Of a stretch of 39,384 nt of DNA, positions 1 through 39,384 are shown piece after piece (position 1 is the stretch's first letter; the number at the start of each line of letters is the position of its first letter). The stretch spans positions 1 through 39,384 of the forward strand of contig CALSCO010000688.1 in assembly GCA_943704415.1 (NCBI GenBank), in the 5' to 3' direction. This DNA comes from Parvularia atlantis. Its lineage: Eukaryota > Opisthokonta > Rotosphaerida. The translations under genes and the position numbers were made by a program. A model generated the notes under the pieces. It saw nothing but the letters and a program-made list of their open reading frames with translations, had not been told where the DNA came from and searched no databases.

Positions 1-1063
1 GGGGGGTCACGCTCGCCGCAGGTGAGCCCGCCCGAGCGAGCCTCGCCCGGTCGCGCCTCGCCCTAACACGCACATGACTTGCCCCTCAGACTCGTCTCCG
101 TCCTCGTCGTCAGATGATGGCCGGCCCAAGGGCGTCGTCGAGACCGCCAAGCCCGCGACGAAAAAGGCGAGCAAGCCCGCCAAGCCCGCGGCTTTAACCC
201 CGGCCCCGGCGCCACCGGCTGCGGCTGTGCGTGCTCCACCGCGGTCGGTCGACCCGCATGACATTGACGCAGCATCTCCGCAGCCGGCCAAGCCAGCCGC
301 GCACATGCCGCCTGCCGAGCCCAAGCAGCCGGCGGTGGCGGTGGACATGCGCCGCGCGGCGGCCGCTGCTGACCCGTCGTCGCAGATCGACTTTTCCCTG
401 CCCCCGGCCGACGAGAACTACCGCCCGCTCGGCATACCCGTCGTGCCGCTGCTCGCGCCATCGTTGGCCGCGTGCGTGCCCCGCGCCACGCCCCCTCGTG
501 CTGACGCTCACAACGAGAACCGATTCGCAGAGCGGCCGAGACAAGCAGCAGGACGGCTGGCGATGTGACGCTGCTAAACGAGGACTCGTGGGCCAACCTG
601 CTGAGCACGGACCAGAGCGCGGCTGCGGCAGCCGCGAGCGGGAGCCCCGGCGAGGGCGCAGGCGGGCCGGCGGGCGACGACGCGAGCAGCCGGTGGACGC
701 AGCTGCAGATGAACGCGAAGCAGCAGTTTGAGCGGGAGAAGGAGCGCAAGGAGCTGGAGGCGCGCCGGCAGGCGGAGGAACGCGAGTTGGAGCAGCGGCG
801 CGAGCGCGAGGCGCAGGAGAAGCTTGAGTGCGCGCGCTTTGTTTGCACACCGGTGTCGCACTGGCTCACCGCAGGCGCGGCGCAGGCGCGAGCGGCAGCT
901 GGCCGAGGAGCGGCGCAGGCGCGAGCGGGAGGAGCAGGAGGCGGAGCGCGAGGCAGCGCGGCGCGCGCGCGAGGAGGAGGTGCGAGGCCGTTGCCGTCGG
1001 CCAGAGGCATGCTCACGCGCGTCACCGCAGATTGCCGCGAGCGACCACGACGGCGAGTTCTGA
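1..1063 (+). CDS. 3' end of a BRD4-like (BET family?) gene, 5' truncated
   Basis: Only the C-terminal part is present. Proposed exons are 1-21 (tentative), 90-471, 531-827, 886-979 and 1031-1063. The protein is Ser/Pro/Ala-rich (an acidic SSPSSSSDDG patch comes first), then has a motif DSWANLLSTD followed by a long Arg/Glu-rich helix (KQQFEREKERKELEARRQ and onward) and ends SDHDGEF. In animal BRD4 and Drosophila Fs(1)h-long, a SWASLV motif precedes a similar charged helix, so a BET-type chromatin reader is my best guess. The bromodomains and NET domain, if any, lie off the left edge, so this is inference from one short motif plus low-complexity sequence. The third intron is a multiple of three, so reading frame alone cannot decide it. 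Any protein with a coiled charged tail remains possible. Confidence 0.45.
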
Positions 1064-1980
1064 CCTCTCTCGCCGCAGTCTCTGTCACATACTATCGCGG
1101 AGTGCACAGTCGATGAGAAAACAACTCAAACATTCTTCCTCGGCAGGGTGGGCTGATCAGCCGTGTGGTCTGGGTGGTCAATAGCCTCGCCGAAAAGCAG
1201 CTGGGCCTCGTCCATGATGGCATACACGTGCTCCGTCTGCGCACGCTCGATGGCAGCACTCCATTTCGCCCCCAGGATGACGAGGGTGCTGTTCCTGAAG
1301 AAAGTTGTCGAAGCCAACCTTCGCGGTCGTCATGGTGTATCCGTTCTGATCCTTGGCGCTGAGAACATCATTCAAGCTGTAGCGGTAGACAATCTTGCCC
1401 TCGGCGACAAGTTTCTTGACCAAGTGCACGCCTCTTGCGCGAGAAGCCTTACTGCAACACTGCCTCTCGTATCAACTTACGCCAGAGTACCTTAAACAGG
1501 CTGTCGAGAAGCAGGACGCCTACCTTAGCCAGCCGATCAACGTGCGCGAGCGTCAAGGTTGACTTTCGTTTGAACGGTCGCTTCAACTTTCTCTGGGAGT
1601 TTCAAGTTGTGCGCGGAAACAAAACGATTGACGAGCATCTTTCCCGATTCCTCGCCCCTGGCCCCTGGCGACGCTGACTGGAGTCCTGTCTACGCATCCA
1701 CGACGCGACTTCGCCGGAAGAGATATCCCCGCGCGAGCGAGTACAAGGCGTTCTGGAAGTCGCTCCCTACGCCCCACTGGGCGGTGATTGATGTCAGGTC
1801 GTCTACGCCGCAAAATCTGAAGAACAACGTCTGGTACATCGTCTACGCGCCTGACTTCTCCGAGTTCACGCTGAAGTGCAACAATGAAGACGATATCACT
1901 CTTCCGTTCGCGCCCTGACACCGACATATGTTTCCCCGTCACATACCTTAGCCTTTTGTACAGGTGTACAGCGTTGCGCG
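1064..1980. other. AT-richer island with broken coding-like relics
   Basis: This roughly 900-base stretch is visibly less GC-rich than the rest of the window and has no gene that I can model. Coding-like segments lie in opposite orientations: about 1126-1429 on the minus strand (containing IMDEAQLLFGEA, which looks like a Walker-B-type ATPase segment, and KKLVAEGKIVYRY) and about 1391-1918 on the plus strand (containing LTPEYLKQAVEKQDAYLSQ and NNVWYIVYAPDFSEF). These faintly recall the P-loop ATPase part of RHS/Crinkler-type proteins, which expand in chytrids and oomycetes, but that is a weak impression. It looks broken and rearranged, and I treat it as a relic. Confidence 0.35.
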
Positions 1981-3784
1981 TCAGAACAGGCAGCGCCCAG
2001 CGTGCCGCGGGAACGGCACGACGTCGCGGACGTTGTCCAGCCCCGTCAGGAGCATCATCAGGCGCTCAAAGCCGAGCCCAAACCCGCCGTGCCGCACCGA
2101 GCCGAACCGCCGCAGGTCGAGGTACCAGTCGTACGTCGCCGGCGCGAGCCCGCACCGCCGCATCTGTGCCTGCGCGCGCACCGCGGCGGCGTGAGGCCGC
2201 GCGTGTGTGAAGCGTGACGCGTGCGCTCACCTCCAGCTCGGGCAGGCGCTCCTCGCGCAGGCTCCCGCCCACGAGCTCGCCGATGCGCGGCACGAGCAGG
2301 TCAACGGCCGACACGGTCTCGCCGGGCCTGCACGGCGGTCAGCAGCCACGACACGACGCCTGTGCGGCCGCACGCACACGGCCGCGTCGCGCTCGTCGCA
2401 GCGCATGTAGAACGGCTTGATGTCACGCGGGTAGTTTGTCACAAAGACGGGCGCGCCGACGACGCGGTCGGCGAGGTACTTTTCGTGCTCGAGGTGCAGC
2501 GGCTCACCCTGCGCGTCCCCCGCGTTAGAGCGCACCCGAGCGCCGCACGCACGCCACGTACCCAGGTTGTCGGGAACTTCCACGACTGCCCCGACGCCGC
2601 CAGCCGCCGGATCGCCTCGGTGTAGGTCATCGTCTCGTAGCGCCCGTCCAGTCGCGCGAGCGCCTCGAGGCGCGCGACGAGCCCGACGCCGCCGCTGTGC
2701 GCGCTCGAGACGTCGTCTGCGCTGCGCGCATGCGTCTCCATCACCTCGAGCTCGTCGCGGCACGTCTCGAGCATGTACGTGACGACCGCGTGCAGCAGCC
2801 CGGCCGTGACCCCGTTCAGCTCCGGCAGCGAGTCAACAAACGCGGCCTCGGCCTCGAGCATCCAGAACTCAGCCAGGTGCCGCGGCGTCTGCGAGCCCTC
2901 AGCGCGGAACGTCGGGCCGAGCGTGTAGACGCGCGAGAGCGCGCTGGCGAGGATCTCTGCCTGCACCAGTCACGCGTCAAGCACGCGCACGGTTCGCACA
3001 AGAGGCACGCGCGCGTGTGCACCTGCAGCTGGCCCGAGACGGTGAGGAACACGGGCGCGCCGAAGAAGCCGCCGTCGGCGTTGTCGGCGCGCGGCTCGAC
3101 GCGGAACATCTCGCCGGCGCCCTCGCAGTCGGTCGCGGTGAGGATGGGCGTGTTGACCTGGGTGAACTGCTGCGCCTGGTGGGCCGGCGCTCGGTCAGCG
3201 CGCGCTGACCGGGCTAGGGCACGCGACACACTCGCAGGTGCGCGTGGACCGCCCAGGCGGCCTCGTGGCGCATGCGCAGTACCGCACCGATGAGCCGCGT
3301 GCGCGGGCGGAGGTGCCCGATGTCGCGCAGGAACTCGACCGAGTGCGCCTTCTTCTGCAGCGGGTACGTCTGCCCGAGTGCGCGCGCATCATCAGCTCGC
3401 GCGCGCGCGCAATCGACAGGCAGCGGACGCGCCTCAGCGGGGCACGTGCCCAGCACGGCCACCTCGCTCGCCTGCAGCTCGACGGCTTGGCCGGCGCCGC
3501 GGCTGGCGACGAGCGTGCCGGCGACCCTGACGCTCGTGCCGGTCGTGAGCCTGCGCGCACGCATCCGTCTCTCTCAGCCGTCGCAGTCCACGCGTGAATC
3601 GGCCGCACCGCTCGGCCTGCGCCACCGGCACGACGACCTGCAGGCCGCGTGCGCTCGTGCCGTCGCTCACGTGCACGAACGCGACGCTCTTGAGCGCCCG
3701 CACCGAGCTGACCCAGCCGCGGACCTCGACCGCGCCGCCGGCCGCCGCCTGCAGCACTTGTCTGACAGTGAAGCGCGCCGTCAT
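1981..3784 (-). CDS. NARS2: Asparaginyl-tRNA synthetase, bacterial/mitochondrial type
   Basis: Class II aminoacyl-tRNA synthetase charging tRNA-Asn, most likely for mitochondria. Exons (minus order): 3609-3784, 3232-3550, 3023-3175, 2562-2960, 2378-2508, 2231-2327, 1981-2169, giving 487 residues (E. coli AsnS has 466). An N-terminal OB-fold anticodon domain ([20 protein letters not shown]) precedes the catalytic core. Class II motif 2 is in [20 protein letters not shown] and motif 3 is [14 protein letters not shown], followed by the family ending [13 protein letters not shown]. It matches bacterial AsnS far better than the cytosolic eukaryotic form. The first residues [14 protein letters not shown] carry Arg and no acids, which suits import but is not a clear presequence. 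An Arg/Ala-rich stretch in exon 2 (after VLGTCPAEA) may hide a further intron. Start 3784 lies 35 bp from the divergent PSMD9 start. Confidence 0.92.
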
Positions 3785-3819
3785 TTTTCTTCTCGCTCTG
3801 CGTTCTTCGCCTCGCGACA
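3785..3819. promoter_or_regulatory. 35-bp shared start region between NARS2 and PSMD9
   Basis: Only 35 bases separate the two divergent start codons. The stretch is pyrimidine-rich on the plus strand and has no TATA-like box. Any promoter for either gene must fit here or overlap the other gene's first exon. Confidence 0.5.
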
Positions 3820-5110: not shown

Positions 5111-6427
5111 TCACGCCGCCGCTGCAGCGACCTTGCCGACGGCGATTGCCGGGTCCTCGACCACGGCAACCTTGCCGACCGAGAAGGCCGGGTCCGCGAC
5201 CGCGCGCGCACCGGCCATCCACTGCTCGACGTCGCTGATCTCCTTTGGCGCGTCGGTGATGACCTCGTACGAGTCCTCGGTGATGCGGATGCAGTCCTCG
5301 ATCTGCGCGTGCGAGGCGCGACCGTCAGCCCGCGAGCGCACTTGTGTCGGCCGCGGCAACGCACCCGCACGCCGCCAAAGTTAATGTACTGGTCGATCAC
5401 CTGCACACCGCGCGTGTCAGCGCAGCACAGCGCAGCGGGCGGCTGCGGCGGCGCGCACATCAAAGTTGTAGTACTTGGCCGTGCGGGTGTTGGCGCGGGC
5501 CTCCTCGATCAGCATCTCGACAAAGTAGACGCCTGTGGGACACGTGTGAGCGCGTGCGCGGCCGACCAGCCGGCCGTGGCGCAGGACGCACCCGGCTCAA
5601 TCGTAAACACCTGGTTGTACGCGAGCACCCACGGCGACGGCGTCGGGTCGTGCACGTCCAGGCCGACCGGGTGGCCGAGACCGTCTGCGCGCAAAAAACG
5701 CGTGAGTGGCCGGAAGACGGCCACGGGGGGCGCAGGCTCGGCGCACGCGGGTAGAAGGTCGAGAGAACGCCAGCGCTGAGCAGCTCGTCGATGCTGCCGA
5801 CGAGGATGCCGGCGGCGGCGAGGCCCTCGACGAGCTTGCGGTTGACGATCGACGTGATTGTGCTCCACGAGACGCCTGCACGTGCGCGCGCGCGTGAGCG
5901 CCCTGGGCAGCGACAGCAGTGCGGCGGCGGCGGCGTACCGGGCGCGCAGGCTTCGATCGCGGCCTTCTGCGCCTGCAGCACCGTGTTGTAGATCGCGGTC
6001 TGCGCCGAGGTGAAGACACCGTTGGCCGGGAAGGTGCGCGTGACGTCCGAGGTGTAGCCGCGGTACTCGCCTGCGGCGTCGACGAGGATCATGTCGGTGG
6101 CGCCGACGGGGGCGTCGTTCTGGATGTAGTGCAGCACGGCGCCATTCTTGCCCGCGCCGAAAATGCCGATGTACGACTGGAAGCGCAGGCCGCAGTTGTA
6201 GCACTCGTGCAGGAAGAGCGACTCGAGGTCCGACTCGGTCGAGCCCGAGGGGCGCACGGCCTGCATGACGGCCTCGTGCGCGCGGCTCGTCACGTCGCTC
6301 GAGATGCGCAGCAGCTGCAGCTCGCGCTCGGTCTTGACCTGCCGGACGCCGAACAGGTACGCCAGCAGGCGGCTCGAGTCGAAGGTGTAGCTGCGCGCCC
6401 CCGAGGGCCGGCGTGAGCAGGGCGCGC

Positions 6428-6471
<44 letters not shown>

Positions 6472-7418
6472 GCGTGTGCGCGCACCTCGCCAGCTCCGGG
6501 AAGCGCGCCAGCGCGTCGGTTGAGCTGACGACGTTGATGCGCGACACGGTCTGCTCGCGCAGGAAGCTCAGGATCTCGTCGTCGTACAGGACGTCATCGC
6601 TGTCGGTCTCGGCCTTGATGGCTGCGCAGCCGGGTCAGCGTGCAATGCGTGCACGTGCACGTGCCCCGCACTGTCAAAGTTGTCCACGCCGCCGTCATAG
6701 ATGATCTCGGAGCGCGACTTGCGGCGCACGAGCATGACCGCGCGCATCGTCTCAAGGCTGAGCAGGAACGACACGTCGGGCACGTTGTAGCCCGTGAGGT
6801 AGCTGCGTGCGGCGCGCGTGGGGTCGGCAACACGCGAGAACGTCAAAAAAAAAAAAAAAGAAACGCATGCGAGCGCACAGGAAGTTCGAGTCCTGGCGGA
6901 AGAGGATGTCCGTGTCCGAGTTGGAGCGCTCCTCCTGCGCGTTGCCCAGCAGCAGCACCCACTCGTCGTCCTGCGTCTGCGACGACGAGCGGAACCGGGC
7001 GAGGAGCTTGTCGCGGTGCTCGCGAAACATGCCGTTCGTGCTCGGCGCGTTGAACGGCGCGCGGCAGCCCGGCATGTCGACAGCGGGCGTGTCGAGGGCG
7101 GGTGCGGGGCCGAAGTAGTCTGGCGGGCCAGGGGCGTTGAGCGCGCGGCACGCGGGAGGGCGCGTGCGTGCGTGCGCACCCGGCGGCATCATGTTCCAGG
7201 CCGAAAACATCAGCAGGCCCGTGACGACGAGCAGCAGCGGCGTGATCGCGCGACGGCGCTGCGAGCGCGCGACGTGCGCTGCATCACGCCACCGGCGCTG
7301 AATTGAGCGCGCGTGCGCGCGCCGCGCGTACCTCGACCACGACGACGAGCGGCGGCGTCGGCGGCGGCGTCTTTCGCCCCGCCTCGACGTCATCGAGGGG
7401 CACCTTGACGTCAGCCAT
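5111..7418 (-). CDS. PEPD: Prolidase-type M24 metallopeptidase with N-terminal membrane anchor
   Basis: Xaa-Pro dipeptidase/aminopeptidase fold. Exons (minus order): 7332-7418, 7180-7258, 6879-7119, 6672-6802, 6486-6621, 6391-6485 intron, 5939-6390, 5747-5875, 5592-5684, 5459-5532, 5365-5400, 5111-5302; 549 residues (human PEPD 493). After a short Pro-rich head, a hydrophobic segment (AITPLLLVVTGLLMFSAW, about residues 33-50) predicts a type II membrane anchor. The aminopeptidase-P-type N-domain includes LYLTGYNVPDVSFLLS. The M24 metal ligands are all visible: Asp in ILVDAAGEYRGYTSD and its second Asp, His in PHGLGHPVGLDVHD, Glu in TIEPGVYF, and Glu in RIEDCIRI. So the enzyme looks active, with two bound metal ions expected. 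Prolidases are usually cytosolic; the anchor suggests secretory-pathway, vacuolar or surface work. One intron carries a 41-base G run and another a 15-base A run. Confidence 0.92.
6430..6470. repeat. 41-base G homopolymer inside a prolidase intron
   Basis: An uninterrupted run of 41 G on the plus strand (C on the sense strand of the gene) within the 95-base intron 6391-6485. The flanking splice signals (donor GTGCGCGC, acceptor GCGCGCAG) and reading frame are intact. The exact length is unlikely to be reliable. Confidence 0.95.
6845..6859. repeat. 15-base A run inside a prolidase intron
   Basis: Fifteen A on the plus strand (T on the gene's sense strand) within the intron 6803-6878, upstream of its acceptor. 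It could act as a long polypyrimidine tract, which is otherwise absent from most introns here. Confidence 0.9.
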
Positions 7419-7467: not shown

Positions 7468-8803
7468 ATGGACGCCGCGCCCGCCACGGCCACCGCCACC
7501 GCGCCCGCACAGCCCGGCCAGCAGCAACAGCCGCCGGCGCGCCACGTGCCGTTCGAGGCGCGGCTCGACAACGTCAAGACGATGGCGAGCATGCTCGCGG
7601 CGATCCAGTCGCAGCCCGTGCGTATTTTTGGCGCGCGATCGCGTTTCGCGCGCCAACGTCTGGACGCGCCCGCAGAAGGTGACCTGCGCCGTGACCGGGC
7701 GCGGCGTGCGCTTCTCGTCGGACGACTCGCACTCGGTGCAGGCCTTCGCGTACCTGCAAAAGTCGTTGCGTGCCGACACCGTCTGGCCGTGGCGCGCGCG
7801 CACGCTCACAATCGCGCGCGCGCCGACCAGGCTCTTCCGCGACTACCGCCTCGACCGCGACCTGCGCTTTACGATCAGCCTCGACACGCTCCTGAGCTGC
7901 CTCAACATCTTCGGCGCGCCCGCGAGCGGTGCCGCCGCGACGAGCGTGTCGCTCGACCTGCTGTTTGACGAGCAGGACCGGTCGCTGCACCTCGTGTGCG
8001 TGGGCGCGAGCTGCCCGCCGCTCGACGCGCCAGTTAAGCGCGCGCGGCAGGCTGTACGACGAGGGCGTGGTGACGACGTGCAACCTGCGCACGTACCAGC
8101 CCGTGCCGCCGGTCGACTTTGGCTTCCGCAACTCGCCCATCGTCAACAAGGTCATCATCAAGGTGTGCGCGCGCAAGACGGGCTGCACCAAGGCTCACGG
8201 GCGCACGCGCGCGCGCGCGCGCGCCAGTCGTCGTGGCTCAAGGACGCGTTTGACGAGATGGACGGCACGAGCGACAAGGTCAACCTGCTCGTCGCGCCCG
8301 CGAGCCCGTACTTTCGCATCTCGACGGTCGGCATGGCCGGGAGCGCCGAGGCGCGCAACACACGCGGCCCCGCTGCATGCGCCTGATGCGGGGGCCGCAG
8401 GTCGACTACCCGAAGACGGCCGACGTGATCGAGACGTTTCAGTCGGAGGACGCGATCGTGCAGAGGTGCGCGCCGTTTGTCGCACCTCGCCGTCACCGAC
8501 AGAGCGAGTGCAGCTACCGCCAGAGCTCGTTCGTGTCGGTGATGAAGGCGCTCGCAATCTCGCACAAGACGTCGCTGCGCATGAACCGGCGCGGCTTCCT
8601 GCACCTCATGTTCATGATCCAGCTACAGGCCGACACGGACGAGCTGCTTTTCGTCGAATACTTTGTGCGTGGCCGCGCACCAGGTGGCTGCGCTGACGCC
8701 GCGCGCACAGCTCGCGCCGGTCGAGCCGGACGCGTACTACCCGGGCGCGCCCGCAGCGGACGACGAGGGCGGGGCGGCGATGGACACGCAGCGCGGGCGG
8801 TGA
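7468..8803 (+). CDS. RAD1: RAD1 subunit of the 9-1-1 checkpoint clamp
   Basis: RAD1 forms the PCNA-like 9-1-1 ring with RAD9 and HUS1, loaded at damaged DNA to activate checkpoint signalling. Exons: 7468-7617, 7676-7764, 7831-7995, 8051-8162, 8228-8350, 8401-8465, 8514-8664, 8711-8803; 315 residues (human 282). Family landmarks occur in order: ARLDNVKTMASMLAAIQ, SLDTLLSCLNIFG, FGFRNSPIVNKVIIK, DAFDEMDGTSDKVNL, SPYFRISTVGMAGSAE, VDYPKTADVIETF and RRGFLHLMFMIQ. The exon joins reproduce the spacing of animal and yeast RAD1. An Ala/Pro/Gln-rich head of about 27 residues is extra. The fifth intron (8351-8400) has no GT donor in phase and is best explained as GC-AG. Confidence 0.92.
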
Positions 8804-8861: not shown

Positions 8862-10004
8862 TCACGCCCCGCGCGCGCCCGCCAGCGCCTTCATGCGCGA
8901 GCGCACGGCCGCGTCCAGATGGGCGTACACGGCGAGGCTGCCGTCGATACCCGTCTGGAACACGCCCTCGAAGCGGTCGCTGTGCAGGCGCGACTCCATC
9001 TGCTGAGGGCGGTGAGCGGACAGCGACCGACGGCGCGACCGCGCACCTCGAAGAACGAGACCTTCTGCGACTTTGGCAGGACGCCGACGGTGAGCACGGG
9101 CCCGTTGCCAGACTCCTCAAGGTGGTTTATATCTGCCGTGTGCGACCGGCGTGAGCGCGCGCGATCGCGGAAGGCCGCAGGGTGCTGCGCACCGAGCAGC
9201 GCCTTGCCGTCGAGGAAGCCCACGGAGCACGCTGCGCGAATGGCCGCCACCGCCCGTCAGCCGCGTGCGTGGCACGCCACGCCGCCGCACGCACCGCACA
9301 GGTAGTCCTTCATGGCGATGCCGGCGTCGATCATGGCGAGCGTGGTCGCGTTGATGCTGGCGGCGGTCGTGGCTGCGCGCGCCGCGTCTCGACATGCGCA
9401 CGAGCGAGCACACGCACGCACGCGCGCACCGCCGTCGGCCTGCAGCACCTGCACGTAGATGTCGATCTGCGAGCGCGGGAAGAGCTGCGTCATGACGACG
9501 GCCTCGAACGACTGCTTGAGCGCGACGGCGACGTCGACGAGCTTGCTGCTCACCGCGCACGTCAGCGACAGACGCATGACATGCGCGCGGGCGTGCGCTG
9601 CAGACCGGTCGCCGCGCGTGCGCCGCCGCCGCTCGCCCGTGCTGAACGTGGCCATCGAGTACTCGCACGTGATCACGGCCTGCTCCTGCACGAGCGTCGC
9701 GACGGCGGCGGCGGCGCGCCCGCGCTGGCGCATCTCGCGCGGCCCGTAGACGGCGACGAGGACCTGCGCGCCGCGTCAGCCGCGCGGGCCGCCGTGCGCA
9801 GGCGCGACGCGACCTTGGTGTTGCCCATTTCGACGTACGCCGAGCCGTCGGCCTCGCGCAGCACGCCCAGGCGGCTCTGCATGCGGCGCAGCTCGCCCGG
9901 CCGGCGCCCGTCCAGCCGAAGGCCCTCGGGCGTGACGTACTCGACCTTGGCCTGGTGCGGCGGTGGCGCGGCGGGCTGAGCGTGCAGAACACGGCAGAGG
10001 CCAT
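8862..10004 (-). CDS. RRP41: Exosome core subunit RRP41 (EXOSC4/Ski6)
   Basis: RNase-PH-fold subunit of the six-member ring of the RNA exosome, which degrades and trims RNA 3' ends in nucleus and cytosol. Exons (minus order): 9993-10004, 9814-9951, 9606-9763, 9430-9545, 9295-9372, 9193-9231, 9047-9132, 8862-8999; 254 residues (human 245). The sequence runs TPEGLRLDGRRPGELRRMQS, ADGSAYVEMGNTK, ATFSTGERRRRTRGDR, FPRSQIDIYVQVLQADG, CSVGFLDGKALL and ESRLHSDRFEGVFQTG, matching EXOSC4 throughout. RNase PH catalysis is lost in most eukaryotic RRP41s. The first exon encodes only MASA before a 41-base intron, so the start is the least certain point. The stop lies 58 bases from that of the convergent RAD1. 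Confidence 0.92.
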
Positions 10005-10053
10005 GCGCGCACCACGGCCATCGCTCTCGTCTGGCTGAGAATGCGACGTCAGC
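10005..10053. promoter_or_regulatory. 49-bp divergent start region, RRP41 / DHHC transferase
   Basis: Head-to-head start codons lie 49 bases apart, the same spacing as prolidase/RAD1. No motif recognised. Confidence 0.45.
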
Positions 10054-12447: not shown

Positions 12448-15400
12448 ATGCAGTCTGTCTTGAACGCGCTGAGCGGCCTGGTGTTCGGCGGCGACTCTGG
12501 CGACGGCGGTGCGCTCACGGGCAGTCTTCACGAGCGTGTGCCGGCGGCGCGCAGCTTCCGGCAGACGTGCGTCGCGCGGCCGGCGCTGGCCAATCCGCTG
12601 GCCAACCTGTCGCACCCAGCTACCTCACGGCGACGGCCGAGGTGGGCAAGACGACGACCGCGCACCAGTCCACGCTCAACATCATGCGCAGCGAGGACGA
12701 GGACACGGACGACGACGGTGCGCGCGCACGCACTTTGCACGCGCGTGACGTGGCTGACCGGCATTCGCGCGTGCACAAAGACATCGAGCGCTCGTTCCTG
12801 ATCGACGAGAGCATGAACGTCTACGCCGAGAAGACCGACGACGGCAACATCGCGCTCTTCTTCCGCGGCAAGCTGCCCAACGTGCGTGCGCGACACCTTG
12901 CGGCGCACCTCCGCTGACCGCTTGCAGGACGCCGTGGCCGAGTACTACTTTGAGGTCGAGCCAGGCAAGGTTGGCAAGCTCGAGGCGCTCGAGCGGAACG
13001 TGCTGCGGGCCGTCTACGAACGCAAGTACGGCCGTGACGCGACCGGCGTCGCTGTCGCCGAGCTCGAGCGCCTGCGCGGGTGCGCGCAAGCCGGCTGCCG
13101 GCCCAGCCCAGTGCTGATGACGTTGTCGCCAGCTCGCGCTCGCGCCCGATGGTCCCGCTCGGCACGCCCGTGGCCAAGCCCGCGGCCAAAGCGACCTCAG
13201 CCACGAGCACGCCCGCATCCGCCGGCAGCAGCCGGGCCGCGCCGCATACGACCGGCCCGGTGCCGAAGATGGGCTCGCTCGACGACGACGGTGCGCGGCG
13301 CACGGCTGCCCGCCCGGGCGACGGTGCTGAGCGTGCGCGTGCAGCCGCGGGCATGTATACGCTGGTCTCGAGCGCGGCCGTGAAGCTGCTCCGCTTCGAC
13401 GGTGGCGCGCTCCAGTACGTGCCCGTCAGCAGCAACGCGACCATCGCCGTGCACAAGCTCAACACGGGCAACTTTGACTGTGCGCGCCTCGCGCGGCCTG
13501 CGTGCGACGCATGTGCGACTCACGCGGCCGTGCACAGTCAAACTGTCGATCACCGTCGACGGCAACAAGATCGAGGCCCCGCTAGACAGCCAGATGGTCG
13601 TCAAGTTCCCGAGGGTGCGCAGCCCGTTCGCAAGGTGTGCGCTGCCCAGCTCACGCGCGCACGAGCGCAGAGCGCGACCGTGGAGATGTCGCTTGCGATT
13701 TTCCGTACGTGGACGCGGCCGCGCTGGTGGCTCAGGGCTGAGCATCGGCGCACGCGCAGCCAATGCATACGGCGTCAAGTTCAAGAACGCGGACGAGCGC
13801 GCGGCCTTTGCAAAGGCGGTCATGAAGGCCTGGATGGAGCATGCACGCCACGAGACCGTCCCCGTGCGTACCGTGCCACAAGTGCGCGCGTACGAGGCAG
13901 GCCTGACCGCGTTCGCCAGGACGACGATTGCCGGATGTACCTGCCGCGCGGTGCGTGCCGCTGCCCCGCGCGCGCGGTGCAGTGGCTGAGCGTCGTGCTG
14001 CCGCAGCGATCGACGAGGACGAGGACGGCGAGCAGGCCGCCGATGACGACAACGAGGACGTGGACGAAGAGGAGGAGCAGGAGGAGGACCGCCGACGCAT
14101 CCGACAGGGCACGCGGAGGGTGCGGTGTTGCTGCGCCCGTGCGTGTGCGGTGACATCGCACTTACGCTGCGCTGGCGCAGGATGACGGCGAGAGCGATTA
14201 TTCGACCGGACGCGCGGGCCAGGACGAGTTCAAGCGCGCCGGCGCCGAGCACAACAGCCAGCTGGCCGTGGGTGCCAGCCGCACCGAGCGCGTGTTTGTC
14301 ATGCGCGGCAACATGGTGCGCTGCTTCCGTCGCCTTTCGGCCGCCGCTGACTCGTTCGCAGATGGGCTTGTTCCGCGCCAACGCGGACAACGAGCTGCAG
14401 TTTGAGCTGACGCGCAAGGACCTCAAGGCGCGCGACGGCTCGCCACTGAAGCCGGTCAAGGTGCAACCGCGGCGGGGGTGGCTGTGCGCGGCTGACCGGC
14501 CGTCGCGACCAGGTCATGATGCACCAGCAGGACGCGTCGATGCTCGCCGTGAACTCGCACGACCAGCGCCAGATCAGCCGCATCGACATGGAGACGGGCA
14601 AGGTCGTCGAGGAATACGTGCGTGCCGGTGCCAGTCGACAGTGCCGGGCGCCCCGCGCTGACGCCGCTGCCGCTGTCGCAGTCGGCCGGCGAGTCGAGCG
14701 TGGTCGACATCGCGCCCGTCGAGCGGTTTGCCCAGGCGACGAACGAGCGCACGTTTTCGGCCATCTCCGGCAAGGCCCTGTTCAAGATTGACCCACTGCA
14801 GGCCTCGGGCGGCAAAGTGCAGGACGGCTCGCTGTGCGCGACCGCGCGTGTGCACGCTGTGCCGGCGCGCACGCTGACGACGCCGCGCTGCAGCAAGGCG
14901 TACTCGTCCAACATGGGCTTTACGTCGCTCGCGACGACGAGTGCGGGCGAGGTCGTCATCGGCGACACGAAGGGCCAGCTGCGCCTGTTTAACAAGTACG
15001 CGACGAACGCCAAGACTCAGCTGCCGGGCTTTGGCGGTGCGTGCGTGTGGGTGTGGTGCGGACGACAACGTCTCGCTGATCACGCCCTTACCGGCAGACG
15101 CGATCCTCGGCGTCGACGTCTCGGCCGACGGCAAGTGGATCCTGGCCACGTGCGCCACATACATCTTGCTCTTCCCGGCCGAGCACCCGGAGGAACCCCA
15201 GAAGACGGGCTTCAGCAAGCCGCTTGGCGTGCACAAGGTACGGCGCCCGCGTCCGCGTCCGGCGAGCAACCGCTAACCGTGCCGCAGCCGCGCCCGATCC
15301 GCCTCGAGCTGACGCCGGAGCACAAGATCAAGCTGGGCAGCGACAAGGCGCGCTGCCCGCCGTGCCCGGAGGGGGGGGGGCGGGCGCTGCTTGCATCTGA

Positions 15401-18788: not shown

Positions 18789-18815
18789 TCGTTGTACAGG
18801 CACGCCAAGGCTCTC

Positions 18816-26242: not shown

Positions 26243-26275
26243 CAACTGATTGCGCCGGTTGCGCGGCAGCGAGGC

Positions 26276-27417
26276 TCACAGGTACAGCGGGTTGCTCGTG
26301 CGGCGCGGCATGCGGCGTGACCACGCGCGGTGGTACTTGCGCAGGACCTCGCCCACGTTGTTCTTCTCGGCCAGGGGCAGGCGCAGCAGCGCCGGCTCGA
26401 ACGCAAGCAGCGTCGGCAGGGTCATCTGCGCGTCGGCGTCCCTCGCCTCGAGCAGCGAGAGGTACATGCGCCCGGGGATGTTGCGCAGCTGACACTGCCC
26501 GCATGTGCGCACAAGCTCGTTGTTAAGACCACGCTCGCCCACATTCAGCCGCGACGCACGTGCGTCAGCAGCGCCGCGCTCGGGCCCTCGACCACGTTGG
26601 GCGACTCGAGGAACGGCGCAATCGGCGCGCGCCCGGCCGACGACGTGTGCAGCACGCGCAGCAGCGGTGGCACGGCCTCGTCCTCCTGCATCACCTCGCG
26701 GTCGACGATGTAGCTGGCCGGACGCAGCGACTCGAGGAGCGTGATACTGTTGGCCGCGTCAGCCGTCCCTCTGCAGCGCACGCTGGCGCACCTCTGCGGG
26801 CTCACACTCGCCATCACCACGGCCGCCCAGTGGAACGCGCGCTCGACGGGGATGGGCCCGCGGCACAGCATCACCAGCGCCGTGTTGCGCTCGTCCACGC
26901 CGAACAGCTCGCACACGGCGTCCTCGGGCGCCTTGCTGGCGCGCTGCCCCTCGACGGCCGTCTCCTCGCCGTACAGGTGCTGCAAGCGAGGCGTGAGCGC
27001 GCCGCGGCACACGAACGGCGCAGCCGCGCACCGGCACAGGCGGCACGGTCAGCGCGCCGAGGCGGCGCTTGATCGGGAAGACGGCGTCGAGCGCGTGCTC
27101 GCCGGGCCCGTTGAAGCCGACGACGAGCGCGGTCGTCGCGAGGGGTCTGCCATCCCTGGGCGCGGTCGCGGCGGTTTCCCACTGAGCGCGTGACGCGCGC
27201 GCGTGTCACGCACGACCCATGCGCATCGCGAGTCGCGCACCTTCCACTTGAGGTCGCCCTCGCACAGCGCTGTGAGCACCTGCCGCACGGGGCGCGCACC
27301 CACTAGCACGTCCGCGTCGTCCTCGTCCGCCTCGGCGCCGTACAGCCGCGCGCGAAAGAGCGGCGCGGGCGCTTCAGCCTCGTCGTCCGAGTCGGACGTC
27401 AGCACATCGTCCGGCAT
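26276..27417 (-). CDS. PSMG1: Proteasome assembly chaperone 1 (PSMG1/PAC1, Pba1)
   Basis: PAC1 pairs with PAC2 to build the proteasome alpha ring and block its dimerisation. Exons (minus order): 27241-27417, 27032-27181, 26792-26979, 26560-26746, 26276-26494; 306 residues (human 288). An acidic head ([14 protein letters not shown]) is followed by [14 protein letters not shown], a strand-rich core ([13 protein letters not shown]), [50 protein letters not shown] and [14 protein letters not shown] near the end. These line up with human PSMG1 in order, including its PNIV-DLPAAVL segment. The start at 27417 is the first ATG in frame. The animal-like resemblance is notable because yeast Pba1 is highly diverged. 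The C-terminal HbYX-like motif would be NPLYL, but the true Hb-Tyr-X at the last three residues (LYL) fits the family. Confidence 0.88.
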
Positions 27418-27650: not shown

Positions 27651-29866
27651 ATGGCCACCCTCGAGGAGTTTGACGGCGCCATCGGCATCGACCTCGGCAC
27701 GACCTACTCGTGCGTCGGCGTGTGGATGCAGGACCGCGTCGAGATCATCGCCAACGACCAGGTGCGCGCCGTGCCCGCCGTGCCCGCTGTTGGCCGCTGA
27801 CGAGGGCGCCGCGACAGGGCAACCGCACCACGCCCTCGTACGTCGCCTTCACCGAGAACGAGCGCCTGATCGGCGACGCGGCCAAGAACCAGTCGGCCAT
27901 GAACCCGAAGAACACGGTCTTTGACGCCAAGCGCCTGATCGGCCGCCGCTTCAACGACGCGTCGGTGAAGAGTGCGTGCGGCCGCGTGCCCATTGTTTAT
28001 TTCCCGCGCCGGTCGCTCACGCCGCCGCGACGCACGCGCGCAGAGGACATGGTCAACTGGCCGTTCACGGTGATTGAGAAGGACGAGAAGCCGTTCATCC
28101 AGGTCGAGTACCAGAAGGAGACGCGCGAGTTCAGCCCCGAGGAGATCTCGTCGATGGTGCTGATCAAGATGAAGGAGACGGCCGAGGCGTACCTGGGCAA
28201 GACCGTCAAGAAGTCGGTCATCACCGTGCCGGCCTACTTCAACGACGCGCAGCGCCAGGTGCGTTGCCCGTGCTTGCGGCTCCCGGCTCGCAGTGACGGC
28301 TGACGCGCACGCGCACGCGCACGCACACGCACACCAGGCCACGAAGGACGCCGGCCTCATCTCGGGCATGGAGGTCCTGCGCATCATCAACGAGCCCACG
28401 GCCGCGGCCATCGCGTACGGCCTCGACTCGGCCAACGACAAGAAGAAGAAGGAGCGCACGGTGCTCATCTTCGACCTCGGCGGCGGCACGTTCGACGTGT
28501 CCCTGCTCACGATCGACTCGGGCATCTTCACGGTCAAGGCCACGGCCGGTGACACGCACCTGGGCGGCGAGGACTTTGACAACCGCATGGTCGAGTACTT
28601 CAAGGGCGAGTTCAAGAAGAAGCACAAGAAGGACCTGAGCGAGAGCGCGCGCGCCGTCCGGCGCCTGCGCACGGCCTGCGAGCGTGCCAAGCGCAACCTC
28701 TCGGCCGCGACGCAGACCTCGATCGAGATCGACTCGCTGTTCGAGGGCATCGACTTTGCCGCGACGATCACCCGCGCCAAGTTTGAGGAGCTGTGCATGG
28801 ACCTGTTTACGGGCTGCATCGACCCGGTCGACAAGGTGCTCAAGGACGCCAAGTACAAGAAGGAGGCGGTCGACGACATCGTGCTCGTCGGTGGCTCGAC
28901 GCGCATCCCCAAGATCCAGTCGCTGCTGCAGGTGCGGTGCCGCTTGCTTTTTTTTGTTTTTGTTGGGGGGCGTGCTGTGGTCGTCTCACGCGCCGCCCGC
29001 GCGTCGTGCAGGACTTCTTCAAGGGCAAGGCGCTCAACCGCTCGATCAACCCTGACGAGGCCGTGGCCTACGGCGCCGCCGTCCAGGCCGCCGTGATCAT
29101 GGGCAAGCAGAACGAGAAGACTGAGAACCTGCTGCTGCTGGACGTCGTGCCGCTGTCGCTCGGCGTGGAGATGCAGGGCGGCGTGATGGCCGTCGTCGTC
29201 CCGCGCAACACGCCCATCCCGACCATCAAGAAGAAGGTGTTCACCACGACCGAGGACCGCCAGACCACGGTTGAGTTCCCGATCTACGAGGGCGAGCGCC
29301 CCATGTGCCGCGACAACAACCTCCTCGGCCGCTTTGAGCTGACGGGCATCCCACCCGCACCGCGCGAGACGCCCGAGCTTGAGGTCACGTTTGACCTCGA
29401 CGCCAACGGCATCCTCCACGTCACGGCCGAGGACCGCGGCACACACCGCAAGAACGACATCGTCATCAAGAACGACTCGGCACGCCTCTCCTCAGCCGAC
29501 ATCTCGCGCATGCTTGCCGACGCCGAGAAGTTCAAGGAGGAGGACCGCAAGAACCGCGAGCGCGTCGCCGCCCGCGACGGCCTCAAGCACTACATCTACC
29601 AGGTCCAGGACTCGCTCAACGACCCTCAGGTCCTCCTGAAGATGTCGGGCGACGTTGATGCCCTGACCGAGGCGCTCAACGAGACGCTCGTCTGGCTCGA
29701 CACGGACGAGACGGCCGACAAGGTGTGGCGCGCGCCCAGTCCCCTGTCGCGCTGCTCGTGCTCATGCGTGCCCCGCCCGGCCCCGCAGAACGACATCGCC
29801 GCCAAGCAGAAGGCGCTCGAGAAGAAGGTTGGCCCGGCGATGGGCCGTCTGTACAACCGGAAGTGA
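27651..29866 (+). CDS. HSP70: Cytosolic Hsp70, Ssb-like, without EEVD tail
   Basis: ATP-driven chaperone. Exons: 27651-27761, 27818-27971, 28044-28258, 28338-28931, 29012-29722, 29789-29866; 620 residues. Hsp70 signatures are intact: [59 protein letters not shown] and [18 protein letters not shown]. It ends AMGRLYNRK without the EEVD that binds TPR co-chaperones. The phrases [20 protein letters not shown] and [20 protein letters not shown] resemble fungal ribosome-associated Ssb (about 613 residues, also lacking EEVD) more than canonical Hsc70. Other parts ([18 protein letters not shown]) are canonical, so the class call is provisional; a binding partner such as RAC is not visible here. Five introns is many for an Hsp70. 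Confidence 0.93.
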
Positions 29867-34000: not shown

Positions 34001-34042
<42 letters not shown>

Positions 34043-34538: not shown

Positions 34539-37500
34539 ATGCCGAGCCAGGCTAGTTCCAGCATGGCGCGTCGAGTGTCGAGCGGCGTCGCGGCGTCGCT
34601 CGAGCCGCCCGCGGCGCTCGTGGAGCAGGTCGCGCTCGAGGTCAGCCGCGCGCTCAACCTGCCGGGCAACCCGAACCACCTGCTGGCCAAGAAGGTCATC
34701 CACGCGGCGCGCGCCGCGTCGGTCGCCGCACAGTTTGTCGAGGGTGCGCCAGACGCGCGCGCACGGACCGCTCTTGCCAGCAGCGTGACCGTCTTGCGCG
34801 CGCCCGCAGCCTGCGCCGCGTACGGCAAGCTGCGCCACGACTTCCTCGAGGTGCTCTACGTCAAGATCACCAGCTACGAGGAGGAGGCCGCGCCCGCGCC
34901 CGGCCTGCAGCCCGTGCCGGCCGCGAGCACGCCGTTCACCGGGCCGACCGGCTTTGGTGCTCACGAGCGCCTCGAGGCGCCGCAGCTGCGCGGCGGGCTC
35001 TTCCTGCCGCACAGCAGCAGCGGCGCCCCCCACGTGCACGACGGCGGCGCACCGGTCGCGCCGGCCGACGAGACGAGCAGCGTCAGCAGCAACGGCACCG
35101 ACCCGGCCAACGAGCACCGCTCGCTCCTCGGTCTCGACGCCCTCGCCGAGCGCAAGCGCCAGGAGCAGGCCGAGCGCGAGCGGGCCAAGCGCGAGGCCGA
35201 CGGCGAGCGCGAGGTGCCGGGCGGCAAGCGCGCACGTGCCGGCGAGCGTGACGGCGAGCGCGACCGCGAGCGTGGCCGCGACCACGACACGTTCCGCGAG
35301 CACGAGCGGGACCGCGACCGCGGCCGCGAGCACGATCGCTTCCGCGAGCGCGAGCGTGACCGCAACCGCGAGCGAGAGCGTGAGCCGTACCGCGAGCGCG
35401 ATTCGCGCGAGCGCGACCAAACGCCCGCACCGACTCACAACGGTTCGCGTGCGCCGTTGTGCCGCGCCGTGTCGTACGAGCTGACGTGCAGACGTACAGA
35501 GTTCAAACGACCGCTGAGTCGCGAGGCGATGGCGACCGACAAGCGGCTGCGCGACCGCGAGGTCGTCCGGCGCAGCGAGTGGGAGGAGACGCCGCGCGAG
35601 CGCGCGAGGCTGGGCACGCCGAGCCGGCCGGGCTCTAGCACCGGCAGCGCCACGGGCTCGTTCTCGACCTGGTCGGGCAACGTCACACCGTCGCTGCAGT
35701 TTGAGCGCGACGACACGGTCAAAAAGGCCCCGGTCGGGTGGGAGAACGCGACGCCGCGCATCTCGTCGTCCTACGGCGATTTTGGCCCGGTGAGCACACG
35801 CACGCACACACAAGCGCGTCACGCCTGACCGCGCGTGCGCCGCAGGGCCTGACGGACGAGGACGCCGTGCACGGCAGCTGGAACGACCCCGACATGGTCA
35901 AGGAGCGCGATGCGCTGGGGCGGCCAGCAGGTGCGCCGCGCGCTTCGGACGGCTGCGCGCGCAGCTCATACACTCTCCGGGGCCAACAGCATCTGCGGTA
36001 CCCGCGGGCCAGCGCCTCGGCTGGCAAAAGGGCCTCGACAAGCGCATGTGGGAGGAGGAGCAGCTCAAGCTCGAGCGCGAGTGGTACAGCGACCGCGAGG
36101 AGGAGACGGTGCGCGAGGCGGCGCTTCGTGCGGCGGGGCTGATCGGTCGCCGCGCGCTCCAGGTCGTCGACGAGGCGCACAATCCGTTCGCCGAGCACGA
36201 CGAGTACTTTGCGCGCAAGGAGCAGGAGCTGGCCAAGCGGCAGATCGTGCGCGCGTGTTGTGCGATGGCACGCGCACCAGCTGAGCCGCACGTGCACCGT
36301 GCGCCCTGTAGAAGAAGCTGTCGATGCGCCAGCAGCAGCTCAACCGGGACAACGAGGCGTGGGAAACAAGCCGCATGCTCGTCTCGGGCGTGGTGCAGCG
36401 CACGAGCGTCGACACGGACTTTGAGACAGAGGAGGAGGTGCACCGGCACTGTGTGTCGCATCTGCCGCTGACAGACAGCACGTGTGCCGGCGCACAGGTC
36501 CGTGTGCACCTGCTCGTGCACGACCTCAAGCCGCCATTCCTCGACGGGCGCATCGTGTACACGCAGCAGCTCGACCCGGTTATCCCGATCAAGGTACGCG
36601 CGACGCCGTACAGCGCGCTGATGTCACTGACGAGTCGCGTGCAACACAGGACCCAACGAGCGACATGGCCCTGTTCTCGCGCAAGGGCTCGCAGCTCGTG
36701 CGCGAGAAGCGCGTGCAGCGCGAGCGGTCCAAGGTGCGGACAGCCTGCCTTGCTGTGTGCGCCGCACAGCCTGCCGACACGGCGTGCAGGCCAACGGCAA
36801 GTTCTGGGAGCTCGCCGGCACGCGGCTGGGCGCGCTCATGGGCGTACAAAAGGAGGAGGGCGCGCAGACCAAGGGTGCGTCGCGGCTGCGCGACGGTGCT
36901 GGCGCTGAGCGCGTGCGCCGTGCAGGCGCGGCGCAGGACGAGGCCGAGTACAAGCACGACTCACAGTTCTCGACGCACATGAAGGATAAGAATGAGGCCG
37001 TGTCGTCGTTTGCGCGCTCCAAGACGCTGAAGGAGCAGGTGTGCCGGGCCCAGCTGCGTCGCTGGCACGCGCACTCACGCGGCGCTCGGCGCAGCGCGAG
37101 TACCTCCCGGCGTTTGCGGTGCGCAACGAGCTGCTGCGCATCATCCGCGAGAACCAGGGTGCGGTGCCAGCGCGCATTGCTTGTGCGCGTGGCGTCTGAG
37201 GCGCGATGCGCACCGCAGTCGTCGTCGTCGTGGGCGAGACTGGCTCTGGTGCGTCATAGACGCGCTCGTGCCGTGGCCGGGCGCGGCTCATCCGCGCGTG
37301 CCCTAGGCAAGACGACGCAGCTGACGCAGTACCTGCACGAGGACGGCTACGGGACGTACGGCCTGATCGGGTGCACGCAGCCGCGCCGCGTGGCGGCCAT
37401 GTCGGTCGCCAAGCGCGTGTCGGAGGAGATGGAGGTGCGTTCGCAGACGCGCGGCGGGGCCGGGCAGGCGCGTGACACGTGACGCGTGCACTGCCAGTGC

Positions 37501-39325
37501 AAGCTCGGCGACCTCGTCGGCTACTCGATCCGCTTCGAGGACTGCACGTCCGAGAACACGATCATCAAGTGTACGCCACGCGCTGGCTGACTGCACGCTC
37601 GGGCCTGACCCCGCGTGCGCGCGCCAGACATGACCGACGGCGTGCTCCTGCGTGAGTTCCTGAGCGCCAAGGAGCGCGACCTCGACAAGTACAGCGCGAT
37701 CATCATGGACGAGGCGCACGAGCGCTCGCTGCACACGGACGTGCTGCTCGGCCTGCTGAAAAAGGGTGCGCGCGCGTGCGGCTGTGCGGTGGCACGCAGC
37801 TGACGCGCGCCGCAGTCATTTCGCGCAGGAGAGACATGAAGCTGATCGTCACGTCGGCCACGATGAACGCGGAGAAGGTGTGCGTTCCCTGGCCGCTGCC
37901 GCCTGCGCATTGCTGAAACGTGCGGCCGCGTGCAGTTTGCCAAGTTCTTTGGCGACGTGCCCGTGTTCACGATCCCCGGGCGCACGTTCCCGGTCGACAT
38001 CCTGTTTTCGAAGAACCCGTGCGAGGACTACGTGGACGCGGCCGTGAAGCAGGCGCGCAGCCGCTGGTCGCGCAGAGGAGGAGGCGCGCTGACGGGCCGA
38101 GCGCACGCCAGGTCTGCGCGATCCACCTGTCGGGGCAGCAGGGCGACATCCTCGTGTTCATGACGGGCCAGGAGGACATTGAGACGACGTGCGAGGTCGT
38201 GGCCGGTGCGACGAGCGTGCCCGCGCGTGGCGTGTGTGCAGCGCGTGCTCAAGCGCCGCGCCAGAACGCCTCGGGCAGCTTGAGGACGCGCCGCCGCTCG
38301 CGATCCTGCCGATCTACTCGCAGCTGCCGGCCGACCTCCAGGCCAAGATCTTCCAGCGCGCGCCCGACAACGCGCGCAAGTGCATCGTCGCGACCAACAT
38401 CGCCGAGACGTCCTTGACGGGTGCGTGCCCCGCGACCACCCCGCACGCGGCGCGGTCTGAGCTGGCGGGCGCGCGCGCAGTCGACGGCATCATGTTTGTC
38501 GTCGACACGGGCTACTACAAGCTCAAGACGTACAACCCCAAGATCGGCATGGATGCGCTGCAGGTGTACCCGATCTCGCAGGCCAACGCCAACCAGCGCG
38601 CCGGGCGTGCGGGCCGCACGGGGCCGGGGTGCGTGCGCGGCGCAGGGCGGCAGCGTGGACGGGTGCTGACAGCCTGCTGCGTGGGCAGGACGTGCTACCG
38701 GCTGTACACCGAGCACGCATACCGGCACGACCTCTTCCCTAACACGATCCCGGAGATCCAGCGCACCAACTTGGCCAACGTCGTGCTGCTGCTCAAGTCG
38801 CTCGGCGTGAAGGACCTGCTGCAGTTTGACTTCCTGGACCCGCCGCCGCAGGTGCGCGCCGTTGCGCGCGGGTGCTCGCTCGCTCACGCGCCCCGACAGG
38901 ACAACATCCTCACGTCGATGTACCAGCTGTGGACGCTCGGGGCGCTCGACAACACGGGCGAACTCACGCCCGTCGGTGCGCACCGACGGGCGACAGCCGT
39001 GTGCGCTAACGCACGCGTGCGGCACGTTGCAGGCCGGCGCATGATCGAGTTCCCGCTCGACCCGTCGCTGTCCAAGATGGTCATCGTGGGCGAGGAGCTC
39101 GGGTGCACGGCCGAGATTGTGGTGCGGCGTGCCGCGCCGTGCTGCCAGCGTGCGGCCGCTCAGACGCGCGACGCAGACGATCGTCTCGTGCCTGTCGGTG
39201 CCGACGATCTTCTACCGCCCGCGCGAGCGCGAGGAGGAGAGCGACAACATGCGCGAGAAGTTCCTCGTGGCCGAGAGCGACCACCTGACGCTGCTGCACG
39301 TCTACCAGCAGTGGAAGGCCAACGG
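34539..39325 (+). CDS. PRP16: Pre-mRNA splicing DEAH helicase PRP16 (DHX38), C-terminus beyond window
   Basis: PRP16 remodels the spliceosome after the first catalytic step and proofreads splicing. I place 24 exons up to 39325; the next intron runs into the G tract at the window's end, so the OB-fold and tail are missing. The N-terminus is disordered with an Arg-Asp/Glu-Arg repeat region (35240-35430) and DHX38-like blocks: [43 protein letters not shown] and [20 protein letters not shown]. Helicase motifs: GETGSGKTT (I), DEAH in [13 protein letters not shown] (II), TSATM (III), [10 protein letters not shown] (V) and [12 protein letters not shown] (VI). A 30-base exon (37219-37248) supplies the start of motif I. 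Intron 38053-38111 fits only as GC-AG. Identity as PRP16 rather than PRP2 or PRP22 rests on the N-terminal blocks. Confidence 0.94.
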
Positions 39326-39365
39326 GTGCGGCGCGGGCTGCTAGCGGCGCGTGACTGAGCGGCGA

Positions 39366-39384
39366 GGGGGGGGGGGGGGGGGGG
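39366..39384. repeat. G run of at least 19 at the window end, inside a PRP16 intron
   Basis: The last 19 bases are all G. They lie about 40 bases into an intron that starts GTGCGGCG at 39326. The window also begins with six G. Confidence 0.9.

What the first reader, a model, noticed from the sequence alone, without database searches (positions are those of the whole stretch)
1..39384. Introns start with GTGCG instead of GTAAGT: possible change in U1 snRNA
Across about 150 introns in 20 genes on both strands, the dominant donor is GTGCGYG. Branch-like CTGAC/CTCAC/CTGAG motifs sit some 15-30 bases before a CAG acceptor, and there is usually no polypyrimidine tract. Standard U1 (5' ACUUACCUG) pairs with GTAAGT and would mismatch the C at +4. 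A donor consensus this uniform suggests either a U1 5' end changed to pair with GTGCG, or heavy reliance on U6 and on intron length. High GC alone does not demand a fixed G-C-G at +3 to +5.
Basis: partly seen in the sequence, partly recalled or inferred. Interest (0 to 1): 0.8.

Follow-up and report, generated by a model that had tools for sequence, protein, structure and literature searches.

The report
GTGCG splice donors in GC-rich protist
The genes in this very GC-rich eukaryotic DNA are cut by about 150 short introns that mostly begin GTGCG, a start already described in some small green algae, and most of that pattern is explained by base composition plus ordinary splicing rules, although the RNA that reads it (U1) could not be examined here.

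Summary
Spliced alignment to seven solved-structure homologues, with no donor rule beyond GT or GC, gave 58 introns, 51 well determined. Of those, 33 begin GTGCG; +4 is C in 42 and A in 1. A motif-blind gene finder gave 93 of 153. Introns are short (median 58-59), mostly end CAG, carry a CTGAC/CTCAC-type branch motif about 18 nt from the end, and lack a pyrimidine tract.

The inference of a changed U1 is weakened, not excluded. Against intron-internal GT contexts, +3G is at background (89% v 81%), +4C modestly raised (85% v 63%), and the strongly selected bases are canonical: +5G, -1G, -2A, more weakly +6T. A at +4 is not depleted relative to C, as a U1 changed to pair with C would predict, but A counts are tiny. 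Ostreococcus and Micromonas are reported to use GTGCGT donors, and Ostreococcus also splices GTRNGT introns (PMC2483917, PMC3879977).

Most likely: ordinary U1 and U6 acting on donors reshaped by GC-biased mutation, with a mild +4 preference. No U1 lies in the window, no genome is held, and the organism is unidentified.

The parts
34563..39344 (+). PRP16/DHX38-like spliceosomal helicase gene; 20 introns placed by homology, 18 of them with margin >=3
37159..37218 (+). PRP16 intron, AGG|GTGCGG, margin 18
38421..38480 (+). PRP16 intron, CGG|GTGCGT, margin 18
38629..38688 (+). PRP16 intron, GGG|GTGCGT, margin 18; by eye, a eukaryotic PRP16 fragment in L004 has an intron at the same position and phase with donor GTGCGC
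38053..38111 (+). GC-AG intron of PRP16, CAG|GCGCGC, margin 9
27651..29866 (+). HSP70 gene, 5 introns
27762..27817 (+). HSP70 intron 1, CAG|GTGCGC, margin 13
28259..28337 (+). HSP70 intron 3, CAG|GTGCGT, margin 22
28932..29011 (+). HSP70 intron 4, CAG|GTGCGG, margin 18
29723..29788 (+). HSP70 intron 5, AAG|GTGTGG (+4 T), margin 16
5111..7418 (-). Xaa-Pro dipeptidase (M24) gene, 10 introns modelled, 8 homology-placed, 7 of these 8 GTGCG
8862..10021 (-). RRP41 exosome gene, 7 introns modelled, 6 homology-placed
7468..8803 (+). RAD1 checkpoint clamp gene; 6 homology-placed introns
1981..3784 (-). asparaginyl-tRNA synthetase gene, 7 introns; holds the only +4A donor of the 51 (GAG|GTGAGC, 2230-2170, margin 5)
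24001..27417 (-). ubiquitin hydrolase (UBP8/USP22-like) gene model with an N-terminal PAC1 match, 16 introns modelled, 6 homology-placed
12448..15805 (+). VID27 gene, 19 modelled introns, 15 GTGCG
15890..17817 (+). SLC19-type folate/thiamine carrier gene, 8 modelled introns, 8 GTGCG

Best explanation
These are ordinary major-spliceosome introns of a GC-rich (about 70%), gene-dense, intron-dense eukaryote (probably unicellular, inferred). An unchanged U1 5' end (ACUUACCUG) still pairs with the exon end (-2A, -1G) and with +1, +2, +3 (G or A), +5 (G) and, where present, +6 (T). Position +4, a weak contact, has lost A under GC-biased mutation. Its C is mostly the local default and is mildly preferred over T and G, perhaps at the U6 ACAGA-box step, where +4 faces the central adenosine. 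Short introns and a CTGAC/CTCAC branch motif about 18 nt from CAG supply the rest (intron definition). Shown here: donor statistics, composition null, branch motif, intron length. Inferred: the U1 sequence, the U6 contact and the mutational history.
For: Selection relative to intron-internal or exon-internal context falls on canonical positions: +5G 33 of 35 v 69 of 151; -1G 40 of 51 v 256 of 1292; -2A given -1G 22 of 40 v 63 of 254; +6T 11 of 33 v 9 of 69 (p=0.03; 31 of 93 in the motif-blind HMM set, p=0.003). +3G is at background and +3A is not lost. At +4 a model favouring A and C alike fits better than a C>T pairing model in the motif-blind HMM set (dLL 21.3 v 14.1) and ties in the homology set (4.7 v 4.8). 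Standard U1 already separates the 45 homology-anchored donors from decoy GTs (AUC 0.89 v exon and 0.89 v intron GTs; 6.2 of 9 positions paired on average). In O. lucimarinus EST-confirmed introns are GTGCGTG outside chromosome 2 and GTRNGT on it, and the authors think a single spliceosome more likely (PMC2483917, passages and section 16); Micromonas canonical introns favour AG|GTGCGT with NCTGAC (PMC3879977, passages). In Saccharomycotina, +4 switches came with an invariant U1 ACUUACC (U1 found in 227 of 230 genomes) and U6 ACAGA (PMC10581693, section 7).
Against: +4C exceeds the composition null (33 of 39 v 69 of 109, p=0.015; motif-blind HMM 93 of 106, p=3e-5), and there is no sign of selection for +4A (dLL 0), which standard psi5 pairing alone would give. 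At +3 in the motif-blind HMM set a C at U1 nt6 fits slightly better than the standard U (dLL 1.8 v 0.7), the reverse of the homology set (1.2 v 2.4). Hypothetical U1 ends with G at nt5, or G and C at nt5-6, give higher AUC (0.91-0.94 v 0.89 in the homology set; partly circular) and stronger duplexes (median -10.1 or -11.8 v -5.1). The U1 of O. tauri is reported as annotated with reads, but its sequence sits in a supplement that I could not read (PMC7671301). Intron-internal sequence (taken from the motif-aware models) may not be neutral. The +4 A counts are 1 to 5.
Confidence: 0.72

Rival explanations
1. U1 has changed: nucleotide 5 (normally pseudouridine) is G, possibly with C at nt6, so that the 5' arm pairs with GTGCG. 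Donors and U1 covaried.
For: +4C enriched over T beyond composition (motif-blind HMM C v T odds ratio 4.9, p=1e-4; homology set of 45, 3.2, p=0.04); the C>T pairing model improves likelihood by 4.8 (51 introns) and 14.1 (153 introns) over neutral; a C at nt6 fits +3 slightly better than U in the motif-blind set (1.8 v 0.7). Precedent for a second U1 with an altered 5' arm: the diplonemid S. specki (PMC12621601, passages).
Against: A at +4 is not depleted relative to C (A v C odds ratio 0.77, 1.24 and 0.83 in the three sets) while T, which would wobble with G, is. At +3, A is not depleted, as C at nt6 would require, and the standard U fits better in the homology set (2.4 v 1.2). The same core donor is reported in O. 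lucimarinus alongside GTRNGT introns.
Confidence: 0.1
2. U6, not U1, has covaried: the central A of ACAGA is G (ACGGA), pairing with +4C and +5G.
For: The same +4 counts as for the U1 rival, since the two predict the same preference. Precedent: an A-to-U change at this U6 position in Cyanidioschyzon merolae, as stated in PMC10581693 (section 7).
Against: ACAGA was invariant in the 240 species of that study; T, which could wobble with G, is depleted at +4 while A is not.
Confidence: 0.05
3. Composition alone: no preference at +4 at all; GTGCG is what a GT followed by a selected +5G looks like in these introns.
For: +3G and most of +4C match intron-internal GT contexts.
Against: +4C 85% (homology) and 88% (motif-blind HMM) v 63%, p=0.015 and 3e-5.
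Confidence: 0.11
4. A recent burst of introner-like repeat introns stamped one donor sequence across the genes.
For: Micromonas introner families carry AG|GYGCGT donors (PMC3879977, passages); 43 real intron pairs reach 30 bits against 10-20 in five shuffles.
Against: No near-identical introns among 154: best pair 38.3 bits, tops of the five shuffles 35.6-37.4; the excess of weak pairs could come from the shared branch motif (inference).
Confidence: 0.02

Closest known systems
Canonical introns of Micromonas (Mamiellophyceae)
   Same: AG|GTGCGT donors and a CTGAC branch motif (PMC3879977, passages); GC of about 64-66% (PMC3033335, passages)
   Different: There the branch motif is 43-52 bp upstream of the acceptor and most genes have no or few such introns; here about 18 nt and 154 modelled introns in 18 genes; +6 is more often C than T here
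Introns outside chromosome 2 of Ostreococcus lucimarinus
   Same: GTGCGTG donors, ACTGAC branch (PMC2483917, passages)
   Different: Intron-poor, with a stricter consensus (87% ACTGAC in 319 EST-confirmed introns); here 18 of 51 donors depart from GTGCG and the branch motif is CT[ACG]A[CG]
+4 switches in Saccharomycotina yeasts
   Same: The +4 preference departs from A (PMC10581693, passages and section 7)
   Different: Switch is A to U, associated there with METTL16 and SNRNP27K loss; here C, with T disfavoured
Alternative U1 of the diplonemid S. specki
   Same: A real case of a U1 gene with an altered 5' arm (PMC12621601, passages)
   Different: A stretch of Cs beside a standard copy; nothing shown here about U1

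Membership tests
Major (U2-type) spliceosomal introns | GT-AG (or GC-AG) ends | tested here: met
   Of 45 introns, 43 GT and 2 GC; RAD1 adds 5 GT and 1 GC of 6. The aligner allowed only GT/GC and AG, so other ends were not tested
Major (U2-type) spliceosomal introns | CTRAY-like branch site upstream of the acceptor | tested here: met
   CT[ACG]A[CG] in 114 of 154 v 27.4 expected; strict CT[AG]A[CT] in 64 of 154 v 13.8
Mamiellophyceae-type GTGCGT introns | G|GTGCG core donor | tested here: met
   33 of 51 GTGCG; -1G 40 of 51
Mamiellophyceae-type GTGCGT introns | T at +6 as the commonest base | tested here: not met
   +6 C 27, T 14 of 51, though T is enriched over context
Mamiellophyceae-type GTGCGT introns | Organism belongs to Mamiellophyceae | not testable with these tools
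   No genome held; gene content gave no placement
U1 with changed 5' arm | U1 snRNA gene whose 5' arm pairs with GTGCG | not testable with these tools
   No U1 in the window at gathering or E<=5; no genome
U1 with changed 5' arm | Donor preferences that match the new pairing (A disfavoured at +4 and +3) | tested here: inconclusive
   C up over T, but A not down relative to C; +3 models disagree between sets; A counts tiny
Introner elements | Near-identical intron copies | tested here: not met
   Best pair 38.3 bits v 35.6-37.4 in five shuffles

The most novel reading that the evidence does not exclude
In this lineage a spliceosomal RNA has covaried with the donor: U1 nt5 (psi to G), or the central A of the U6 ACAGA box to G, so that +4C is a paired base. 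That would be a natural compensatory change in one of the most conserved RNA contacts of eukaryotes, in an intron-rich genome.
Probability: 0.15. Interest if true: 0.75.

Novelty: new member of a known kind. Interest (0 to 1): 0.33.

Why it matters
A GTGCG consensus in an intron-dense genome (about 6 introns per kb of coding sequence in the motif-aware models) shows how far GC bias may move a donor while -1G, +5G and +6T stay enriched. It gives a clean system to ask whether U1, U6 or composition sets +4. If U1 or U6 proved changed, it would be a rare natural covariation.

Tried and rejected
Whole-genome search for U1: no genome held. U1 in the window by Rfam at gathering and at E<=5: none; the three weak E<=5 matches are two miRNA families and a snoRNA. 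Finding more of the organism: HSP70 in viral contigs gave three loci at 46-48% identity, not read; PRP16 in viral contigs gave none; PRP16 in genome contigs gave one scaffold of a bacterial MAG with a 61-residue eukaryotic PRP16 piece, and that MAG has no U1 match at E<=10. Cafeteria was considered for its GC of about 70% (PMC6972860, passages) and set aside: 1.67-1.89 introns per gene there v 154 in 18 here. Introner burst: rejected. 'Seesaw' between exonic AG or -1G and intronic GCG: significant only in the motif-aware set (p=0.014; 0.006), not in the homology set of 45 (p=0.21; 1.0) or the motif-blind set (p=0.32; 0.07); +4C v AG p=0.11, 0.64, 0.41; so not used. The antisense intron null was not used, because the branch motif CTCAC reads GTGAG there. 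Other +4 models gave dLL 4.6 and 16.9 (C only), 2.2 and 12.5 (T disfavoured), 3.1 and 8.4 (G disfavoured) in the homology and motif-blind sets. The motif-aware HMM has a known error: its PRP16 protein lacks the RAGRTGPG stretch that homology supports before the 38629 intron. The motif-blind HMM also errs (HSP70 intron 1, v 36). The script label NUP133 (18816-22398) is wrong; Pfam gives an HPS6 C-terminal domain. The script label RAD9 is RAD1. The SLC19 alignment was not used for spliced alignment. Papers opened but not relied on: PMC11732430 (passages) and PMC2518118 (passages).
Full report
What is there. The window is eukaryotic nuclear DNA, 65-75% GC in 2-kb steps, packed with genes. A gene finder told nothing about donors beyond GT placed 153 introns in 18 genes, 93 starting GTGCG. 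Pfam and solved-structure searches name 16 of the 18 gene models: AsnRS, PSMD9/Nas2, Xaa-Pro dipeptidase, RAD1, RRP41, DHHC, an RRM protein, VID27, an SLC19 carrier, a protein with an HPS6 C-terminal domain, a ubiquitin hydrolase, HSP70, a phosphodiesterase/sulfatase-like protein, EMC7, a tetraspanin and PRP16 (PRP16 by solved structures only). The model at 18235-18788 matched nothing in Pfam, and the one at 22432-23914 matched only a domain of unknown function (DUF1751), which I take from recall to be TMEM115.

Independent check. For seven genes with solved homologues I ran a spliced protein-to-DNA alignment that knows only GT (or GC, penalised) and AG, then banned each donor in turn to see how much score was lost. 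58 introns were placed and 51 had a margin of at least 3. In these, 33 are GTGCG; +3 G 43, A 5, C 2, T 1; +4 C 42, T 6, G 2, A 1; +5 G 47; +6 C 27, T 14, G 9, A 1; -1 G 40; -2 A 23. The seven dropped are listed in the observation check. The motif-aware model gives 154 introns, 111 GTGCG and 11 GC donors, but has at least one error against homology.

Other signals. Introns have median length 58-59. CT[ACG]A[CG] lies in the last 45 nt of 114 of 154 (27.4 expected). In the 115 of 154 introns with a CT[GC]A[CG], a median of 18 nt follows its A (19 in 33 of the 45 homology introns). CAG ends 142 of 154. There is no pyrimidine tract.

Is GTGCG more than composition? As a whole, yes: 30 of 45 homology-anchored donors against 66 of 404 intron-internal GTs, p=4e-12. 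Position by position the answer differs (the null is intron-internal sequence of the motif-aware models). Given GTNCG, G at +3 is 89% in donors and 81% inside introns (p=0.42). Given GTGNG, C at +4 is 85% (homology), 88% (motif-blind HMM) or 90% (motif-aware) against 63%. Given GTGC, G at +5 is 94% against 46%. Given GTGCG, T at +6 is 33% against 13%. On the exon side -1G is 78% against 20%, and -2A before G 55% against 25%. So the strongly selected bases are those of the ordinary consensus, and the odd-looking +3 and +4 are largely what these introns offer, with a real but modest surplus of C at +4.

What reads +4? Of simple models, 'A favoured' (standard psi5) gains nothing. 'C with T as wobble' (a G in U1 or U6), 'C only' and 'A and C alike' gain about equally in the 51 homology introns (4.8, 4.6 and 4.7 log units); in the motif-blind HMM set they gain 14.1, 16.9 and 21.3. 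A counts are 1 to 5, so this is suggestive only. A preference for C or A over U would fit a contact at the U6 central adenosine rather than U1 pairing; that U6 m6A43 faces +4 comes from PMC10581693 (passages). At +3 the two sets disagree: the standard U at U1 nt6 fits better in the homology set (2.4 v 1.2 for C), C slightly better in the motif-blind set (1.8 v 0.7). Hypothetical U1 arms pair better with the donors, being written from them (median duplex -10.1 and -11.8 v -5.1), yet the standard arm already separates donors from decoys with AUC 0.89 v 0.91-0.94 (45 donors).

Precedents. I read passages and section 16 of PMC2483917: EST-confirmed O. lucimarinus introns outside chromosome 2 have the 'atypical consensus GTGCGTG' while chromosome 2 introns prefer GTRNGT; the authors raise snRNA changes as conceivable but hold a single unchanged spliceosome more likely. 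Passages of PMC3879977 give AG|GTGCGT for Micromonas canonical introns. Passages of PMC7671301 say O. tauri U1, U2, U5 and U6 are annotated and give distinct read profiles; sequences are in a supplement that I could not read. Section 7 of PMC10581693 reports no U1 or U6 change behind +4 switches in Saccharomycotina. Passages of PMC13326754 say that F. borealis, from a study of genomes in which 95% of introns escape GT/AG, has two U1 versions with identical 5' ends (the 95% from the abstract listing). Passages of PMC6461891 report a conserved U1 motif in the B. natans nucleomorph although its introns show no donor motif beyond GU. Against these, passages of PMC12621601 describe an altered second U1 in S. 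specki. PMC3033335 (passages) links high GC to frequent GC-AG introns; this window has a few (3 of the 51).

What could not be done. No U1 or U6 match lies in the window, no genome is held, and the searches made found no relative except a 61-residue PRP16 fragment, 87% identical, in a scaffold of a bacterial MAG. By eye, that fragment has an intron at the same place and phase as the window's 38629 intron, with donor GTGCGC in a T-rich intron: one case in which GTGCG is not composition, and so a point against a pure composition reading. The organism is unidentified.

Conclusion. I put standard U1 and U6 with GC-shifted donors at 0.72, composition alone at 0.11, changed U1 at 0.10, changed U6 at 0.05 and an introner burst at 0.02.

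Noticed in passing
window 1080-1960: Island of 51-60% GC in a 70% GC contig with only short, overlapping open frames on both strands and no gene model made; looks like a broken or foreign insertion. Its frames were not searched against families.
   Followed up: partly
window 6431-6470 and 39366-39384: Poly-G runs, one inside the dipeptidase intron 6391-6485 and one at the contig end; possible sequencing or assembly artefact.
   Followed up: no
window 27651-29866: HSP70 whose model ends in MGRLYNRK, without the C-terminal EEVD of cytosolic HSP70s (motif recalled); best solved matches are heat shock-related 70 kDa protein 2, HSP70 1A and heat shock protein 70A, with SSB1 behind.
   Followed up: no
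window 24001-27417: One gene model matches a proteasome assembly chaperone profile (PAC1) N-terminally and zf-UBP plus UCH C-terminally; a fusion, or two genes joined by the model.
   Followed up: no
window 18816-22398: Protein with an HPS6 C-terminal domain match (E 2e-10).
   Followed up: no
window 1981-3784: Asparaginyl-tRNA synthetase whose only solved match at E<=1e-50 is 6pqh (bacterial, recalled).
   Followed up: no
window 38053-38111 and 8351-8400: GC-AG introns with exonic AG (CAG|GCGCGC in PRP16, GAG|GCGCGC in RAD1).
   Followed up: partly
L004 1-1195: A bacterial MAG scaffold in the GTDB set (MKVN01000029.1) begins with eukaryotic fragments: one with short introns that looks like a ribosomal protein gene (by eye, not searched), and a PRP16 fragment; contamination or chimera.
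   Followed up: partly
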